Assembly (NCBI RefSeq): GCF_017356245.1
Contig: NZ_JAFMZZ010000001.1
Coordinates: forward strand, 2,023,489 to 2,087,488
Reading direction: 5' to 3'
Origin: Bordetella petrii
GTDB lineage: Bacteria; Pseudomonadota; Gammaproteobacteria; Burkholderiales; Burkholderiaceae_B
Length of the DNA stretch: 64,000 nt
The position numbers and the translations under genes are program-made. The notes under the pieces are model-generated. The model was not told the origin of the DNA. It did not search any database and was given only the letters and a program-made list of their open reading frames with translations. Shown here piece by piece: positions 17,197-63,414 of the stretch (its first letter is position 1; every line of letters begins with the position of its first letter).

Positions 17197-17285
17197 GGTG
17201 TCAGGCTCCGCAGGTGCCTGACACCGCTGTGTGCCATCGCTGCCTCAGTCGTACGGTGTCTGGCACCCTGCGGGAGCCAGACACC
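17197..17285. repeat. paired-hairpin repeat, copy 1 (REPIN-like)
   Basis: Two hairpins, 17197-17225 (arms GGTGTCAGGC/GCCTGACACC) and 17255-17285 (arms GGTGTCTGGC/GCCAGACACC), are separated by 29 nt. The linker, read on the minus strand, aligns with the linkers of the two other copies at 32 and 62 kb (GT-C near one end, CACAC near the other), so this copy is inverted relative to them. Its first hairpin has a loop shortened by 2 nt. It lies between two convergent genes (sulfatase and class II aldolase); the rest of the 195-nt gap shows nothing else. Confidence 0.85.
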
Positions 17286-17350: not shown

Positions 17351-18121
17351 TCAAGTGCGATACGACGGATCGCGCCGGTTCAGCAAGCGCAGCATCGCCG
17401 GCCATTCCAGGATGCCGTGCGGCCGCCTGACCTCGGGCTTGTACAGGTGCTCGGTCTTGGCCACCACCGCGGCGTCCGGAATGTTCAGCTCGGTGTTGCA
17501 GGCCATGGCGTCCACCTGCGCGCGGCAGGCCATTTCCAGCCAGTAGATCGTATTGAAGGCCTGCGGGATATCGGCGCCGGTGACCAGCAGGCCGTGGTTG
17601 CGCAGCACCATCGCATCGCCCTTGCCCAGGTCGCGCAGCAGGCGCTCGCGCTCTTGCAGATCGATGGCCGGCCCCTCGAAGTCGTGATAGGCAATGCTGG
17701 CGAAGCGCATGGCCGTCTGGGTCAGCGGCAGCAGCCCGCACTTCAGCGCCGACACCGCCATGCCGGCGCGGCTGTGGGTATGGATGACACACTGCGCATC
17801 GTGGCGCGCGCCGTGCACGGCGCTGTGGATGACGTAGCCCGCGGGGTTCACGCCGTAGTCCTGGTGCGGGTTGAGCAGCACATTGCCGGCCACGTCGATG
17901 GTGATCAGGCTGGACGCCGTGATCTCTTCATACAGGTAGCCGTACGGATTGATCAGCAGCCGGTCGGCTTCACCCGGAATGCGCGCCGTGATGTGGTTGT
18001 AGATCAGGTCGCTCATGCCGTACATCGGCATCAACCGGTAGCAGGCGGCCAGTTCGACGCGGGTTTCCCATTCTTGCGCCGACACGGCCGACTTCACGTC
18101 CATGGTCAGGTCTTCGTTCAT
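17351..18121 (-). CDS. class II aldolase/adducin family protein
   Basis: 256 residues. Zinc ligands are visible as H-T-H in VIHTHSRAGMAV and a later His in VLRNHGLLVTG. An early segment (YGMSDLIYNHITARIPG) and LINPYGYLYEEITASSLITID are typical of the longer class II aldolase-like proteins in proteobacteria. The family includes fuculose/ribulose phosphate aldolases and decarboxylase-like enzymes; the substrate cannot be deduced. The start (ATG at 18119-18121) has a strong AAAGGAGG site. It lies downstream of an IclR regulator on the same strand, with a 180-nt gap that shows no other feature. Confidence 0.85.
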   Translation of the reverse strand: MNEDLTMDVKSAVSAQEWETRVELAACYRLMPMYGMSDLIYNHITARIPGEADRLLINPYGYLYEEITASSLITIDVAGNVLLNPHQDYGVNPAGYVIHSAVHGARHDAQCVIHTHSRAGMAVSALKCGLLPLTQTAMRFASIAYHDFEGPAIDLQERERLLRDLGKGDAMVLRNHGLLVTGADIPQAFNTIYWLEMACRAQVDAMACNTELNIPDAAVVAKTEHLYKPEVRRPHGILEWPAMLRLLNRRDPSYRT

Positions 18122-29548: not shown

Positions 29549-31663
<2,115 letters not shown>

Positions 31664-31687
31664 AGGTGGTGGTGGCTTTCTGTTGGC

Positions 31688-31845
31688 GTCGAGGCCGTGC
31701 CTGGGGGCGGGGGCGGGCTTCACGGGGCCGGTCGGCCGCCTTCGCGGCCGACATCGCGTTGTCAACCTCGTCAGCCTGCGGCTTCCTTCGGTTTCCCTCG
31801 CTCGGCCCCGAGGCGCCCGCCCCCGCCCCCAGGCACGCCCTCGAC
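31688..31845. repeat. long near-perfect inverted repeat after thiC
   Basis: Arms 31688-31718 and 31815-31845 are 31 nt each and match at 30 positions; the core of the left arm is GCCTGGGGGCGGGGGCGGGC. They enclose 96 nt, which itself holds a 9-bp hairpin (GTCGGCCGC CTTC GCGGCCGAC, 31731-31752). No transposase or target-site duplication is evident. It could act as a terminator or be the remnant of a small mobile element. Confidence 0.75.
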
Positions 31846-31937
31846 TCGCAACGGATGATCATCGCCGCATTGCTGGGGAGAATCGCGTTCTTTTGCTTCG
31901 TGGGGGGCCACCGGCCAGGAAAAGAAAATCGTGCGGG

Positions 31938-31990
31938 GCCGCCATGGCACGCCGCCCTGCGCGGCGCGCCATGGCATTCGGATGGCGGCC
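31938..31990. repeat. second strong hairpin after thiC
   Basis: Arms 31942-31956 and 31962-31976 pair at 14 of 15 positions, built from GCCATGGC and CGCCGC, with a 5-nt loop. Outer blocks GGCCGCCAT (31938-31946) and ATGGCGGCC (31982-31990) are also inverted. Together with the long repeat at 31688 and the paired hairpins at 32022, it fills the 500-nt gap between thiC and the aldehyde dehydrogenase gene; I see no gene there. Confidence 0.65.
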
Positions 31991-32021
31991 GGCTTGAGGG
32001 CTGATGCTGATTGGATTGCCA

Positions 32022-32112
32022 GGTGTCAGGCTCCCGAAGGGTGCCTGACACCGTGCTGTTGAGATAGCTGCTGCACACATCGGTGTCAGGCACCCTTCGG
32101 GAGCCTGACACC
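32022..32112. repeat. paired-hairpin repeat, copy 2 (REPIN-like, most regular)
   Basis: Hairpins 32022-32052 and 32082-32112 have identical 10-bp arms (GGTGTCAGGC/GCCTGACACC). Their 11-nt loops, TCCCGAAGGGT and ACCCTTCGGGA, are exact reverse complements, so the two units are in opposite orientation. The linker is 29 nt, with GT-C at the left and CACAC near the right. The copy lies between convergent thiC and the aldehyde dehydrogenase gene. Confidence 0.9.
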
Positions 32113-32163
32113 TGGCAACGACGTCAATAGAACGCCAACCTGACGCGCCCCGGGGCAAACGGC

Positions 32164-33594
32164 TTAGGCCGCGGTGTAAGCCGTCTTGACGCTGGTGTAG
32201 AACTCTGCCGCGTAGCGCCCCTGCTCGCGCGGGCCGTAGCTGGAGCCCTTGCGGCCGCCGAACGGCACATGGTAGTCGACGCCCGCCGTGGGGCAGTTGA
32301 CCATCACCATGCCGGCCTGGGAATCGCGCTTGAACTGCGTGGCGTACTTCAGCGACGTGGTGCAGATGCCGGACGACAGGCCGAATTCAGTGTCGTTGGC
32401 CAGTTCCAGCGCATGCTCGAACGAATCGGCCGGGATCACCGCGGCCACGGGGCCGAAGATTTCTTCGCGGCTGATGCGCAGGTCGTTGCTGCAATCGACG
32501 AACAGCGCCGGCGTCATGTAGAAGCCGTCGGTGGCGCGCTTGACGCGTTCGCCGCCATAGGCCAGCTTGGCGCCCTCTTCGCGGCCGATGCCGACGTATT
32601 GTTCGTTTTGCGCCAGCTGGCTTTCATCGACCACCGGGCCGATGTCGGTGCCGGCCAGCAAGGCGTCGTCGATTTTCAGGCCCTGCAGGCGCTCTTGCAT
32701 GGCGGCGACAAAACGCGGGTAGATGCCCTTTTGCACGATCAGGCGGCTGGATGCCGTGCAACGCTGGCCGGTGGAAAAGAACGCGCCATTGACGCAGCTT
32801 TCCACCGCCACTTTCAGATCGGCGTCGTCCAGCACCACCATGGGGTTCTTGCCGCCCATTTCCAGCTGCACCTTGGCCAGGCGCGTCATCGCGGCCTGCG
32901 CCACGCGGCGGCCAGTGGCCACCGAGCCGGTGAAGCTGATGGCGTCGACGCGCTTGTCGTCCAGGATGGCCTGGCCGACGATGCCGCCGCGGCCCATGAC
33001 CAGGTTGAACACGCCCGGCGGCAGGCCGGCGCGGCTGAGGATCTCGGCCAGCGCCCAGGCGCTGCCCGGCACCAGGTCGGCCGGCTTGAACACCACCGTA
33101 TTGCCGTAGGCCAGGGCGGGCGCGATCTTCCAGGCCGGGATCGCAATGGGGAAATTCCAGGGCGCGATGATGCCGACCACGCCCACCGGCTCGCGGGTGA
33201 CGTCGGCTTCGACGCCGGGGCGCGTCATGGGCAGTTTCTCGCCCTGAATGCGCAGCGCCTCGCCGGCGAAGAACTTGAAGATGTAGCCGGCGCGGCTGGC
33301 TTCGCCGATGCCCTCGGGCAAGGTCTTGCCTTCTTCGCGCGACAGCAGGCGGCCCAGCTCTTCTTTGCGCGCCAGGATCTCGGTGCCCACGGCGTCCAGG
33401 ATGTCGGCGCGGCGCTGGCCGGTGGTGCGGGCCCAGTCATACGCGGCGGCGCGCGCGGCCGCAATGGCCTGGGCGGTCTGGGCGGCGTCGGCCTGGGCAT
33501 ATTCGCCCACGATGTCGGCCAGGTTCGAGGGATTGATGTTGTTGCGCGTGTCGACGCCGTCGACCCAGGCCCCGTTTATGTAATTCGCATGCAT
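32164..33594 (-). CDS. aldehyde dehydrogenase (alpha-ketoglutarate semialdehyde type)
   Basis: 476 residues. NAD(P)-dependent ALDH fold: PWNFPIAIPAWKIAPALAYGNTVVFKPADLVP, FTGSVATG, general base Glu in QLEMGGKNP, and nucleophile Cys in FFSTGQRCTASS. The ending VPFGGRKGSSYGPREQGRYAAEFYTSVKTAY resembles ketoglutarate-semialdehyde dehydrogenases used in sugar-acid and hydroxyproline breakdown; the exact substrate is inferred. The start ATG is 33592-33594, with GGAAGAG upstream. It is the last gene of a GntR / FAD-oxidase / ALDH operon on the minus strand, 107 nt after the oxidase gene. Confidence 0.9.
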   Translation of the reverse strand: MHANYINGAWVDGVDTRNNINPSNLADIVGEYAQADAAQTAQAIAAARAAAYDWARTTGQRRADILDAVGTEILARKEELGRLLSREEGKTLPEGIGEASRAGYIFKFFAGEALRIQGEKLPMTRPGVEADVTREPVGVVGIIAPWNFPIAIPAWKIAPALAYGNTVVFKPADLVPGSAWALAEILSRAGLPPGVFNLVMGRGGIVGQAILDDKRVDAISFTGSVATGRRVAQAAMTRLAKVQLEMGGKNPMVVLDDADLKVAVESCVNGAFFSTGQRCTASSRLIVQKGIYPRFVAAMQERLQGLKIDDALLAGTDIGPVVDESQLAQNEQYVGIGREEGAKLAYGGERVKRATDGFYMTPALFVDCSNDLRISREEIFGPVAAVIPADSFEHALELANDTEFGLSSGICTTSLKYATQFKRDSQAGMVMVNCPTAGVDYHVPFGGRKGSSYGPREQGRYAAEFYTSVKTAYTAA

Positions 33595-61113: not shown

Positions 61114-62046
61114 ATGTCACAGTCTTCGCCCGAATCCCCGCCCACCCTGCCCCTGGTGCCCGCCCACGTCATCCGGCAATTCGCGCGCCGCGGCGACTTG
61201 TCCGATGCGCAATTCCTGTATGGCGAGATCGCCCGCCGCATGCTGGGCCGGCTGCAATACATCCGCCTGCAACCGGCCGCCCTGCTGGATGCCGGCTGCG
61301 GCGCCGGCGACAATCTGCCGCTGCTGCGCGAACGCTATCCCGACGCCGCCTACCTGGGCCTGGACGCCAGCGAGGCGCTGCTGGCGCACGCCCGCCAGCG
61401 CCATGCCGGCGGCGGGGTAGCCCACTGGCTGGGCAAGCTGGTGGGCCGGCAGGGCCACGGCCCGCGCTTCGTGCGCGCCGACCTGGCCGACACCGGCCTG
61501 GCCGCCGAATCCCTGGACCTGGTGTGGTCCAACCTGGCGCTGCACTGGCATCCCGCGCCGCACGCGGTGCTGGCTGAATGGCGGCGCGTACTCAAGGTGG
61601 GCGGGCTGGCGATGTTTTCCTGTCTGGGGCCGGGCACGCTGCGCGAATTGCGCCAGGCGCTGGACGACGCCGGCCTGCGCACCGCCACGCCCTCGTTCGT
61701 GGACATGCACGACTTCGGCGACCTGCTGGTGGAAAGCGGCTTCACCGACCCCGTAATGGACCAGGAAACCCTGACGCTGACCTACCGCAGCCCGCAACGC
61801 CTGCTGGAAGACGTACGCGCGCTGGGCGGCAACCCGGCCCGCGACCGCCGCCGCGGCCTGGCCGGACGCGGCTGGCGCGACCGCCTGTGCGCCGCGCTGG
61901 AAGCGCAGCGCAATGCCGAAGGGGTCATTCCGCTGACCATCGAGGCGGCCTACGGCCACGCATGGCGCGCCGCGGCGCGCCACAGCGCGCCGGGCGAAAC
62001 CCGGTTGTCGGTCAGTGCAATAGGCGGACGCCGCGCGGGCGGCTGA
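61114..62046 (+). CDS. bioC: BioC-like malonyl-ACP O-methyltransferase / SAM methyltransferase
   Basis: 310 residues. The SAM motif I is LLDAGCGAGDNLPLL, then YLGLDASEALLAHAR, LDLVWSNLALHWHPAPHAVLAEWRRVLKVGGLAMFSCLGPGTLRELRQAL, a stretch characteristic of BioC (the WSNLALHW part). BioC methylates malonyl-ACP to begin biotin synthesis. The usual partners bioH/F/B are not adjacent here, so the assignment to biotin is from sequence alone. It is divergent from comF. Confidence 0.82.
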   Translation: MSQSSPESPPTLPLVPAHVIRQFARRGDLSDAQFLYGEIARRMLGRLQYIRLQPAALLDAGCGAGDNLPLLRERYPDAAYLGLDASEALLAHARQRHAGGGVAHWLGKLVGRQGHGPRFVRADLADTGLAAESLDLVWSNLALHWHPAPHAVLAEWRRVLKVGGLAMFSCLGPGTLRELRQALDDAGLRTATPSFVDMHDFGDLLVESGFTDPVMDQETLTLTYRSPQRLLEDVRALGGNPARDRRRGLAGRGWRDRLCAALEAQRNAEGVIPLTIEAAYGHAWRAAARHSAPGETRLSVSAIGGRRAGG

Positions 62047-62063: not shown

Positions 62064-62154
62064 GATATCTGACTTCCGCAGGGTGTCGGATATCGTTCTA
62101 TTGGGACGATCTCGCCACACTTCGGTGTCTGACACCCTGCGGGAGTCAGACACC
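62064..62154. repeat. paired-hairpin repeat, copy 3 (REPIN-like, diverged)
   Basis: Hairpins 62064-62094 (arms GATATCTGAC/GTCGGATATC, one mismatch) and 62124-62154 (arms GGTGTCTGAC/GTCAGACACC) are separated by 29 nt. The left stem has changed from the GGTGTC type to GATATC on both arms. Loops TTCCGCAGGGT and ACCCTGCGGGA keep the inverted relation. It lies between convergent bioC-like and carboxylate-amine ligase genes. Confidence 0.85.
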
Positions 62155-62169
62155 TTGTATCTTGGCGCC

Positions 62170-63414
62170 TCAGTGCAGGCGGTCGGGGCGCCAGCCGGGC
62201 GTGACGCCCGCTTCGGGCGTGGCCAGGGCCTGCACCCCGTGCACCGGCTCGGACGTGGCGCGGATCCGGCGCCGCGGCACGTCGGCCGCCGGGCCGGTTT
62301 CGCGTTCGCCGCGCCAGGTGCGCGTCATCGATTCGACCACCAGCGGCAGGTCGCGCAGCCGGTGGAACTGGCTGCGCAGCCAGCGGGCATCGTTGCCGTT
62401 GCGGATGGACTCATCGCGCAGCGCCGCCAGCATATCGCCGGTGCCCAGCTCGTCGGCAATCGGCATCAGGCGCTGGAACAGGCCGCGCAGATGATCGATC
62501 AGGCGCAGGCGCTGGCCGTCGGGCGTAACGTAGCTGCCCTGCAGGCCGAAGCGGCACGCCTGGAAATGATTGCTGCGGTACGCCAGCCAGGCGGCCGGCG
62601 CGGGTTCGGGCTCGCGCGAGACCAGCACCGCCAGCGCCTGCGCGAAGGCGGCCAGCTGGCAGGCCCGTTCGACCGTCAGGGGCGTATCGCACACGCGGAT
62701 CTCGACCGTGCCGAACTCGGGCTTGGGCCGGATGTCCCAGTACAGGTCTTTGATGCTTTCGGCCAGGCCGCTGGTGCGCAGCTGCGCCATGTGGGCCTCG
62801 AACCGGTACCAGTCGGTAACGTCGGCCGGCAGGTGGCCGGCCAGCGGAAAGCTGCTGACCGCATTCAGGCGGCAGCACGAAAACAGGGTGTCCACGCCCT
62901 CGTAGTAGGGCGACGAGGCCGACAGGGCGATGAAATGCGGCACATAGGGCGACAGCCCGCGCACCATGCGCACCGCCGCGTCGCCCGAGGGCACGCCCAG
63001 GTGGATGTGCTGGCCGAACACCGTGAACTGGCGGGCCAGGTAGCCGTACATCTCGGCCAGGTACTGGAACCGGGGCGAATCGGAAATGGCGCGTTCCTGC
63101 CAGCGCATGAAGGGGTGCGCGCCGCCACCGGCCACGGATACGCCGACGGCATCGGCCGCGTCGCACAGGGCATCGCGCATTTCGCGCATTTCGGCCAGCA
63201 GGCCCATGGGGTGCTCGTGCACCGAGGAATTCAGTTCGATCATGGACCGGGTGATTTCGGGCTTGACCCGGTCTGCAATGGGGTGGTTGGCCATCTGGGC
63301 CAGCAGTTCGTCGGCAGCGGCGGCCAGGTCGAAGCTGCGCTGATTGATGAGTTGCAACTCGAGCTCGATGCCGAGTGTGTTGGGGGCGGACGAAATGAAC
63401 GGGATCTGTTCCAT
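62170..63414 (-). CDS. YbdK-type carboxylate-amine ligase (GCS2 family)
   Basis: 414 residues. The opening [20 protein letters not shown] and [16 protein letters not shown] carry Glu residues that bind metal and [69 protein letters not shown] and [20 protein letters not shown] are typical of the GCS2/YbdK family. E. coli YbdK has weak glutamate-cysteine ligase activity; the true role is unclear. GAAGGAG precedes the ATG. A 363-nt spacer separates it from the TRAP permease gene upstream. Confidence 0.92.

What the first reader, a model, noticed from the sequence alone, without database searches (positions are those of the whole stretch)
32022..32112. A dispersed REPIN-like element: two opposed hairpins with a fixed 29-nt linker
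Copy 2 has two identical 10-bp stems (GGTGTCAGGC/GCCTGACACC). Their loops, TCCCGAAGGGT and ACCCTTCGGGA, are reverse complements, so the units point in opposite directions, as in REPINs. The same design recurs at 17197-17285 and 62064-62154, and the linker is exactly 29 nt in all three. All three copies sit between convergent gene pairs, the place where insertion does least harm or where a two-way terminator is useful. Orientation is readable from a T-T or A-A mismatch next to an inner CCC/GGG stem.
Basis: partly seen in the sequence, partly recalled or inferred. Interest (0 to 1): 0.75.

Follow-up and report, generated by a model that had tools for sequence, protein, structure and literature searches.

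The report
Orphan REPIN-like paired hairpins in Bordetella
The three paired DNA hairpins belong to a family of more than a hundred small repeats scattered behind genes; sister species carry a matching hairpin-cutting enzyme flanked by the same repeats, but this bacterium appears to have lost it, leaving its repeats stranded yet still well formed.

Summary
In detail: three 89-91-bp elements, each two opposed hairpins around a 29-nt linker. The genome (Bordetella petrii group) holds at least 151 such elements at 141 sites; the linker is 29 nt in 101 of 126, and the stems covary.

The REPIN reading is largely right, with corrections. (1) No RAYT/Y1 transposase was found in this genome. Six of eight congeners have one, flanked on both sides by these repeats; the other two lack both. 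At the RAYT locus of close relative G001 this genome has 92-93% identical flanks 183 bp apart instead of 1449, holding only hairpin remnants: most simply, RAYT was deleted and the repeats are orphaned. (2) Of 138 sites 78 are convergent, 56 co-directional and 4 divergent, mostly just behind stop codons. (3) The GTAG/GTGG tag is absent (CCA instead), and U-tracts are no commoner than background, so a two-way intrinsic terminator is unsupported.

Compared with G001, this genome has no array above two and no identical copies, yet equal stem integrity (96.25 versus 96.75% Watson-Crick). A RAYT-like protein without catalytic residues is conserved across the family. Verdict: a new variant of a known kind.

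The parts
32022..32112 (+). Copy 2, full REPIN-like element; with the outer CCA/TGG tags 32019-32115
   Evidence: R1 114 bits
32022..32052 (.). Left hairpin of copy 2: 10-bp stem, T-T mismatch, inner CCC/GGG stem
32053..32081 (+). 29-nt linker of copy 2, '+' orientation
32082..32112 (.). Right hairpin of copy 2, reverse complement of the left, A-A mismatch
17197..17285 (-). Copy 1, full element, linker in '-' orientation
   Evidence: R1 100 bits
62064..62154 (+). Copy 3, full element; left hairpin with paired changes (GATATC...GATATC)
   Evidence: R1 95.2 bits
15302..17155 (+). Sulfatase-domain gene on the left of copy 1
17351..18121 (-). Class II aldolase-domain gene, convergent, on the right of copy 1
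29750..31663 (+). thiC, on the left of copy 2
32164..33594 (-). Aldehyde dehydrogenase gene, convergent, on the right of copy 2
61156..62046 (+). BioC-like methyltransferase gene on the left of copy 3
62170..63414 (-). YbdK-family carboxylate-amine ligase gene, convergent, on the right of copy 3

Best explanation
The elements are non-autonomous, REPIN-like substrates of a RAYT-type HUH/Y1 transposase of the Bordetella petrii group. As single strands each half can fold into a hairpin with an internal mismatch and, when the arms match, the whole element folds on itself; the RAYT is thought to recognise these hairpins and copy or move the doublet as a unit (taken from the REPIN/TnpA-REP literature, not shown here). 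Copies are found mainly just behind stop codons (shown). In this genome the single RAYT gene was most likely deleted between its flanking elements (inferred from synteny and parsimony), so the family no longer multiplies and persists as an old, dispersed population at gene 3' ends. Its stems remain intact because of a 3'-end role, or template-switch repair of palindromes, or because the loss is recent (not decided).
For: RAYT and elements go together: 6 of 9 genus genomes have one PF01797 match, all 6 have R1 elements; G004 and G007 have neither; G000 has elements only. G001's RAYT passes the NCBIfam NF047646 REP_Tyr_transpos cut-off (86.6 vs 80 bits) and matches PDB 4er8 TnpA-REP (E 1.9e-5). 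All 6 RAYT loci have R1 matches on both sides, some of them partial, one side of one locus a six-copy array. Loss: RAYT lies beside the same hydrolase gene in G001, G002 and G005; in G000 the flanks align to G001 at 91.7 and 93.1% but stand 183 bp apart instead of 1449 and hold a truncated element and a further partial one, with no RAYT-coding trace. Occupancy differs between relatives: the YbdK site is filled in the window and L206 and has no element in L207-L211; the thiC site is filled in G001 and G008, empty in G006. Turnover: G000 131 of 141 sites single, none above 2, no identical elements, median nearest-neighbour identity 0.872; G001 147 of 176 elements in arrays of 2-11, 14 identical to another, 0.958. 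Stems covary: 57 two-sided cells, shuffled mean 22.7, 0 of 500 shuffles.
Against: The canonical GTAG/GTGG tetranucleotide is absent. No transposition was observed. G007 has the same hydrolase-to-ugpC interval without RAYT, and I built no tree, so that RAYT was never at this locus in the own lineage is not excluded; RAYT sits elsewhere in G003, G006 and G008. G005's RAYT match has an in-frame stop. The G000-G001 contrast is one pair; both samples derive from lists capped at 150 scored candidates with a model built on G000 copies, and about 6 listed G001 sites were not fetched. Stem integrity is not lower in G000, so decay after loss does not show in the stems. In the covariation test one measure, further pair types, is no higher than in shuffles (17 vs 16.7, 287 of 500). 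G010, G027 and G062 have PF01797 genes and no R1 match.
Confidence: 0.8

Rival explanations
1. The elements are primarily functional mRNA 3'-end structures (barrier to 3' exonucleases, Rho-related ends, or stop-proximal ribosome effects) kept by selection on the host; mobility is only their origin. Not exclusive of the best explanation.
For: 78 of 138 sites convergent against 72 of 693 element-free neighbour pairs; co-directional sites lie a median 21.5 bp behind the upstream stop, and 53 of 56 are nearer that stop than the next start. Between 15 orthologous G000/G001 pairs linkers differ at 26% and stems at 8.5% of positions; of 33 changed stem pairs 18 changed on both sides and stayed paired. 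Stems as intact without RAYT as with it.
Against: The same placement follows from selection against insertions near promoters. Two-sided changes concentrate at two stem positions, as expected if whole hairpins are exchanged by conversion or template switching. Orthologous elements are less alike (median 0.81) than their flanks (0.90). U-tracts no commoner than background.
Confidence: 0.35
2. They are intrinsic two-way transcription terminators that evolved as such.
For: Strong hairpins between convergent genes; at the YbdK site two other Bordetella (L233, L236) have hairpins with T-tracts, by eye, where the window has the element.
Against: 8 of 252 outer ends have a U-tract, 10 of the control windows do; the terminator scan of 31500-32700 found 4 sites (1.4 expected), none at the element; 56 of 138 sites are co-directional; the family tracks RAYT in the genus.
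Confidence: 0.05
3. They are MITEs of an unrelated (DDE) insertion sequence.
For: Inverted ends, about 90 bp, dispersed, occupancy differs between relatives.
Against: Each end is itself a hairpin, and the gene flanked by these repeats in six congeners is a RAYT. Target-site duplications were not examined, nor was a DDE insertion sequence with these ends sought.
Confidence: 0.04
4. They are the already named Bordetella repeats BRE (about 90 bp) or Bor (26-30-bp stem-loops), or close relatives of them.
For: Length, tandem arrays and host genus fit BRE; hairpin size fits Bor (PMC3110155, section 14; PMC1590033, passages).
Against: BRE is listed with 1-29 copies per genome and in Comamonadaceae and Rhodocyclaceae too; R1 matched 5 of 121 genomes of the own family, under stricter filters and with the genomes unnamed. 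The sequences are in figures or supplements that I could not open, so this is untested.
Confidence: 0.15

Closest known systems
REPIN / RAYT (TnpA-REP) systems of Pseudomonas, Stenotrophomonas and Enterobacteria
   Same: Two inverted hairpins with a spacer, over 100 extragenic copies; in congeners one RAYT flanked by the same repeats; a mismatch within the stem, as described for E. coli REP (PMC8266576, passages)
   Different: Outer tag CCA before the stem instead of GTAG/GTGG; linker mostly exactly 29 nt; strong bias to gene 3' ends, where SBW25 doublets are called randomly distributed in extragenic space (PMC3116915, passages); no RAYT found in this genome
TIRYT / TIRtrons: RAYT-like genes flanked by inverted repeats unrelated to GTAG REPs (PMC3733652, passages)
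   Same: RAYT-type gene flanked by repeats without the GTAG tag
   Different: Here the flanking repeats are paired hairpins with very many dispersed copies
BRE, Beta-proteobacterial repeat element (PMC3110155, section 14)
   Same: About 90 bp, mostly intergenic, tandem arrays of variable number in Bordetella
   Different: 1-29 copies per genome and no RAYT mentioned in the section read; sequence identity not testable here
Bor repeats (PMC1590033, passages)
   Same: 26-30-bp stem-loops abundant in Bordetellae, said to share some similarity with E. coli REPs
   Different: Described as single stem-loops; sequence not seen

Membership tests
REPIN | Two REP-like hairpins in inverted orientation with a short spacer | tested here: met
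   linker 29 nt in 101 of 126
REPIN | High copy number, extragenic | tested here: met
   at least 151 elements at 141 sites; 1 of 142 sites inside a called gene
REPIN | 5' tetranucleotide GTAG/GTGG at the foot of the palindrome (definition in PMC3686654, passages) | tested here: not met
   before the stem GGTGTC stand C 62%, C 90%, A 92% of 126 copies; no GTRG
REPIN | Cognate RAYT in the same genome | tested here: not met
   PF01797 0 matches, control positive in E. coli; RAYT protein finds only a paralogue without catalytic residues; remnant locus
REPIN | RAYT flanked by the same repeat (tested in relatives) | tested here: met
   6 of 6 RAYT loci have R1 matches on both sides at E <= 1, the weakest side E 3e-4
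REPIN | Site occupancy differs between relatives (sign of mobility) | tested here: met
   YbdK and thiC sites
REPIN | RAYT cuts the hairpin as single-stranded DNA | not testable with these tools
   needs biochemistry
RAYT (the protein of the congeners) | HUH motif, catalytic Tyr, NF047646 above its cut-off | tested here: met
   PNHVH printed for 5 of 6 loci, L046 not printed; NF047646 86.6 vs 80 bits, tested for G001's only; Tyr of RYIELNPVR aligned to 4er8 DYIYINPV (that this is the catalytic Tyr is recalled)
RAYT (the own genome's paralogue, G000:C4:918765-919502) | HUH motif and catalytic Tyr | tested here: not met
   HUH region reads NDRI here; Trp stands at the Tyr position in 36 of 36 aligned relatives; no Pfam or NCBIfam match at E <= 0.001
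Intrinsic terminator | U-tract after the stem | tested here: not met
   8 of 252 outer ends; 10 in control windows
BRE / Bor repeats | Sequence identity to the published consensus | not testable with these tools
   sequences are in figures or supplements; no supplement look-ups were allowed

The most novel reading that the evidence does not exclude
Loss of the active RAYT did not end the system: the hairpins have been taken over by the host as mRNA 3'-end elements, and the family-wide RAYT descendant without catalytic residues (its GRPRK tail looks like an AT-hook to me; an element lies 17 bp behind its own stop codon here) is their binding protein: a fully domesticated repeat-protein pair in which stem pairing is under selection without transposition.
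Probability: 0.1. Interest if true: 0.8.

Novelty: new variant of a known kind. Interest (0 to 1): 0.5.

Why it matters
A published model of REP evolution predicts that repeats stop multiplying and gradually degrade once RAYT is lost (PMC3686654, passages). Here two close relatives, one with RAYT and one apparently after its loss, form a natural experiment. Turnover (arrays, identical copies) differs in the predicted direction, hairpin integrity does not. That makes the question whether REPINs are kept by their transposase or by the host directly testable. The conserved RAYT homologue without catalytic residues is a candidate host factor.

Tried and rejected
RAYT in the own genome: sought by family and by protein; only a paralogue without catalytic residues. 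Rfam: no family at the elements at gathering scores, only a tRNA in the window. Intrinsic terminator: rejected. Arm-to-arm dependence: same arm type in 28 of 85 pairs of the four common types, 26.5 expected; 8 of 118 parsed pairs have identical arms, so the arms vary largely independently; left open. Target-site duplications: not tested; the flanks show no strong motif beyond the tags. R1 in the family: 5 of 121 genomes (stricter filters). YbdK in viral contigs: nothing. Structure of the paralogue: tool switched off; its PDB sequence search gave 14 rows, the two aligned being antibody light chains and the others named likewise, at E >= 0.027, taken as chance. Literature: no paper held both 'Bordetella petrii' and 'repetitive extragenic palindromic'; 'RAYT' with 'Bordetella' gave 31 papers, 20 listed, of which by title and abstract only PMC3733652 looked relevant.

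Full report
Observation. The three elements are as described: two opposed hairpins around a 29-nt linker at 17197-17285, 32022-32112 and 62064-62154. In copy 2 the 10-bp stems are identical and the loops reverse-complementary. Thirty-two copies oriented by their linker give the consensus CCA-GGTGTCnGrCTCC..GGTGyCnGACACC-linker-GGTGTCnGrCACC..GGAGyCnGACACC-TGG. In the left hairpin the mismatch position holds T in 32 of 32 copies, opposite T in most; the right hairpin holds A opposite A in most. The ends are thus symmetric, and only the linker tells the orientation of an element.

Size of the family. BLAST with copy 2 gave 77 rows in the own genome, 40 of 177 candidates scored. Model R1 matched all 150 candidates that it scored, of 3250. 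In the 113 stretches nhmmer at E <= 1e-3 finds 151 distinct elements at 141 sites, 130 nearly full length (one search counted 154 before stretches that overlap were reconciled). The seven 20-kb stretches had none, but I had picked them away from known matches. The linker is 29 nt in 101 of 126 measured copies and 27-31 nt in 117 (4 of 130 full copies not placed). Conservation stops at the CCA/TGG tags.

Structure. In the 32-copy alignment 7 of 24 pairs have two-sided changes, 57 cells in all, shuffled mean 22.7, 0 of 500 shuffles; sliding the partners lowers pairing from 98.7% to 42% or less. One measure, the number of further pair types, is not above shuffles (287 of 500 reach it). The two-sided changes concentrate at two positions of each stem. 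Arms of one element vary independently: same type in 28 of 85 pairs of the four common types, 26.5 expected. The RNA fold of copy 2, whose arms match, is one long hairpin (-85.3 kcal/mol, z -13.6).

Gene context. A codon-usage gene caller that I wrote (it recovers the Pfam-supported genes beside the three copies) gives 142 sites: 78 convergent, 56 co-directional, 4 divergent, 3 at stretch ends, 1 inside a called gene. Element-free neighbour pairs in the same stretches: 72 convergent, 487 co-directional, 134 divergent; with gaps of at least 60 bp 20, 213 and 129. Fisher p is 1e-30 and 2e-34. Co-directional sites lie a median 21.5 bp behind the upstream stop, 53 of 56 nearer to it than to the next start. 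The element is a gene-3'-end element rather than a convergent-gap element. U-tracts follow 8 of 252 outer ends, against 10 of the windows 25 nt further out.

The transposase. PF01797 has no match in the own genome, with a positive control. In the genus search 6 of 9 genomes, own included, have one match each. R1 elements occur in these 6 and in the own genome and were not found in G004 and G007. All 6 RAYT loci have R1 matches on both sides, some partial; one has a six-copy array. G001's RAYT passes the NF047646 cut-off and aligns with TnpA-REP 4er8. Outside the genus G031 has a PF01797 gene and 26 R1 match rows, with weak R1 matches near the gene; G097 has 3 weak R1 rows and is not among the 22 of 121 genomes with PF01797; G010, G027 and G062 have such genes and no R1 match. 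R1 may miss other hairpin sequences.

The loss. RAYT lies beside one hydrolase gene in G001, G002 and G005, with an ABC-transporter ATPase gene beyond it in G001 and, by alignment, in G005; that the two genes look RBBP9-like and ugpC-like is my reading. In the own genome these flanks align to G001 at 91.7 and 93.1% but are 183 bp apart instead of 1449. The interval holds a truncated element and a further partial one and no RAYT-coding trace (best E 2.4). The own genome is closer to G001 than G002 and G005 are (91.7 against 89.4 and 84.6% for the hydrolase flank, all compared with G000), so deletion between flanking repeats is the simplest reading. Against it: G007 has the interval without RAYT, RAYT is elsewhere in G003, G006 and G008, and no tree was made.

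After the loss. G000: 131 of 141 sites single, 10 double, no two full elements identical, median nearest-neighbour identity 0.872. G001: 176 elements at 70 fetched sites, 147 of them in arrays of 2-11, 14 identical to another, 0.958; by eye about 6 listed G001 sites were not fetched. At 31 of 141 G000 sites an element is present between matching flanks in G001, a lower bound. For 15 orthologous pairs (14 G000 elements; 2 of 17 pairs not parsed) linkers differ at 26%, loops at 10.5% and stems at 8.5% of positions; of 33 changed stem pairs 18 changed on both sides and stayed paired, 5 changed on one side and stayed paired, 6 are unpaired in G000 and 4 in G001. Watson-Crick stem pairs: 96.25% in G000 (116 of 130 elements parsed), 96.75% in G001 (106 of 128). 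Turnover differs; stem integrity does not.

Mobility. At the YbdK site L206 has an element and L207-L211 have none (L210 has one about 2 kb further on). Over all 52 loci searched only L206 and L210 gave R1 matches. At the thiC site G001 and G008 are filled; in G003 the two genes lie on different contigs, each with an R1 match near it; G005 has weak matches; G006 is empty; for G002, G004 and G007 only single flanks were recovered, without R1 matches.

The paralogue. The own genome's only RAYT-like protein found (246 aa, G000:C4:918765-919502) has 31% identity to G001's RAYT. It has NDRI where RAYTs have the HUH motif, and Trp stands at the Tyr position in all 36 aligned relatives. Matches occur in 94 of 121 family genomes, 89 of them at 42% identity or more by my count of the rows, and 2831 database proteins match, named putative or IS200-like transposase or hypothetical by sources. 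It is present in G004 and G007, which lack the repeats, so it does not by itself maintain them. An element lies at L115:3051-3145, 17 bp behind its stop.

Organism. Names come from the YbdK scan: Bordetella petrii BT 1 9.2 (97%), Bordetella sp. BOR01 (95%; contig length equals that of G008:C22), B. genomosp. 2 (95%), 4 and 7 (90%). That G001 is B. petrii DSM 12804 is recalled from its length only.

Literature. PMC3686654 (passages) defines REPs by GTRG plus palindrome and predicts degradation after RAYT loss. PMC3733652 (passages) describes TIRYTs and mentions loss of REPtrons by deletion in E. coli strains. PMC8049555, PMC3116915, PMC6006769, PMC8266576, PMC2817692, PMC12306157, PMC1590033, PMC2267715 and PMC2572626 were seen as passages, PMC3110155 as passages and section 14. 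In the listings, which show only part of the hits in several cases, I saw no report of this family in B. petrii.

Noticed in passing
G000:C4:918765-919502 (L115:3163-3903, minus): RAYT-like protein without HUH and Tyr, with a GRPRK tail, beside what I read as an S-(hydroxymethyl)glutathione dehydrogenase gene; matches in 94 of 121 family genomes; no Pfam or NCBIfam match.
   Followed up: partly
window 31664-32018: A second dispersed repeat on the thiC side of copy 2: a large imperfect hairpin (about 31679-31855) and a part that recurs beside REPIN-like elements, in L071 and L112 as an inverted pair around one. G004, which lacks the elements, has many matches to it.
   Followed up: partly
L233 and L236, behind YbdK: Hairpins with T-tracts, by eye two-way terminators, in Bordetella genomosp. 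1 and 5 at the site where the window carries copy 3.
   Followed up: no
G001:C1:3908124-3909696 and other places: Tandem arrays of the element in the RAYT-bearing relative, here mostly at a period of 181 bp.
   Followed up: partly
G003, G006, G008: RAYT lies away from the hydrolase gene that it neighbours in G001, G002 and G005, so the RAYT gene has moved or been replaced within the genus.
   Followed up: no
4 of 17 orthologous element pairs G000/G001: The linker scores in the opposite orientation at the same site in the two species, as if the element was inverted in place or re-inserted; the strand call could be ambiguous.
   Followed up: no
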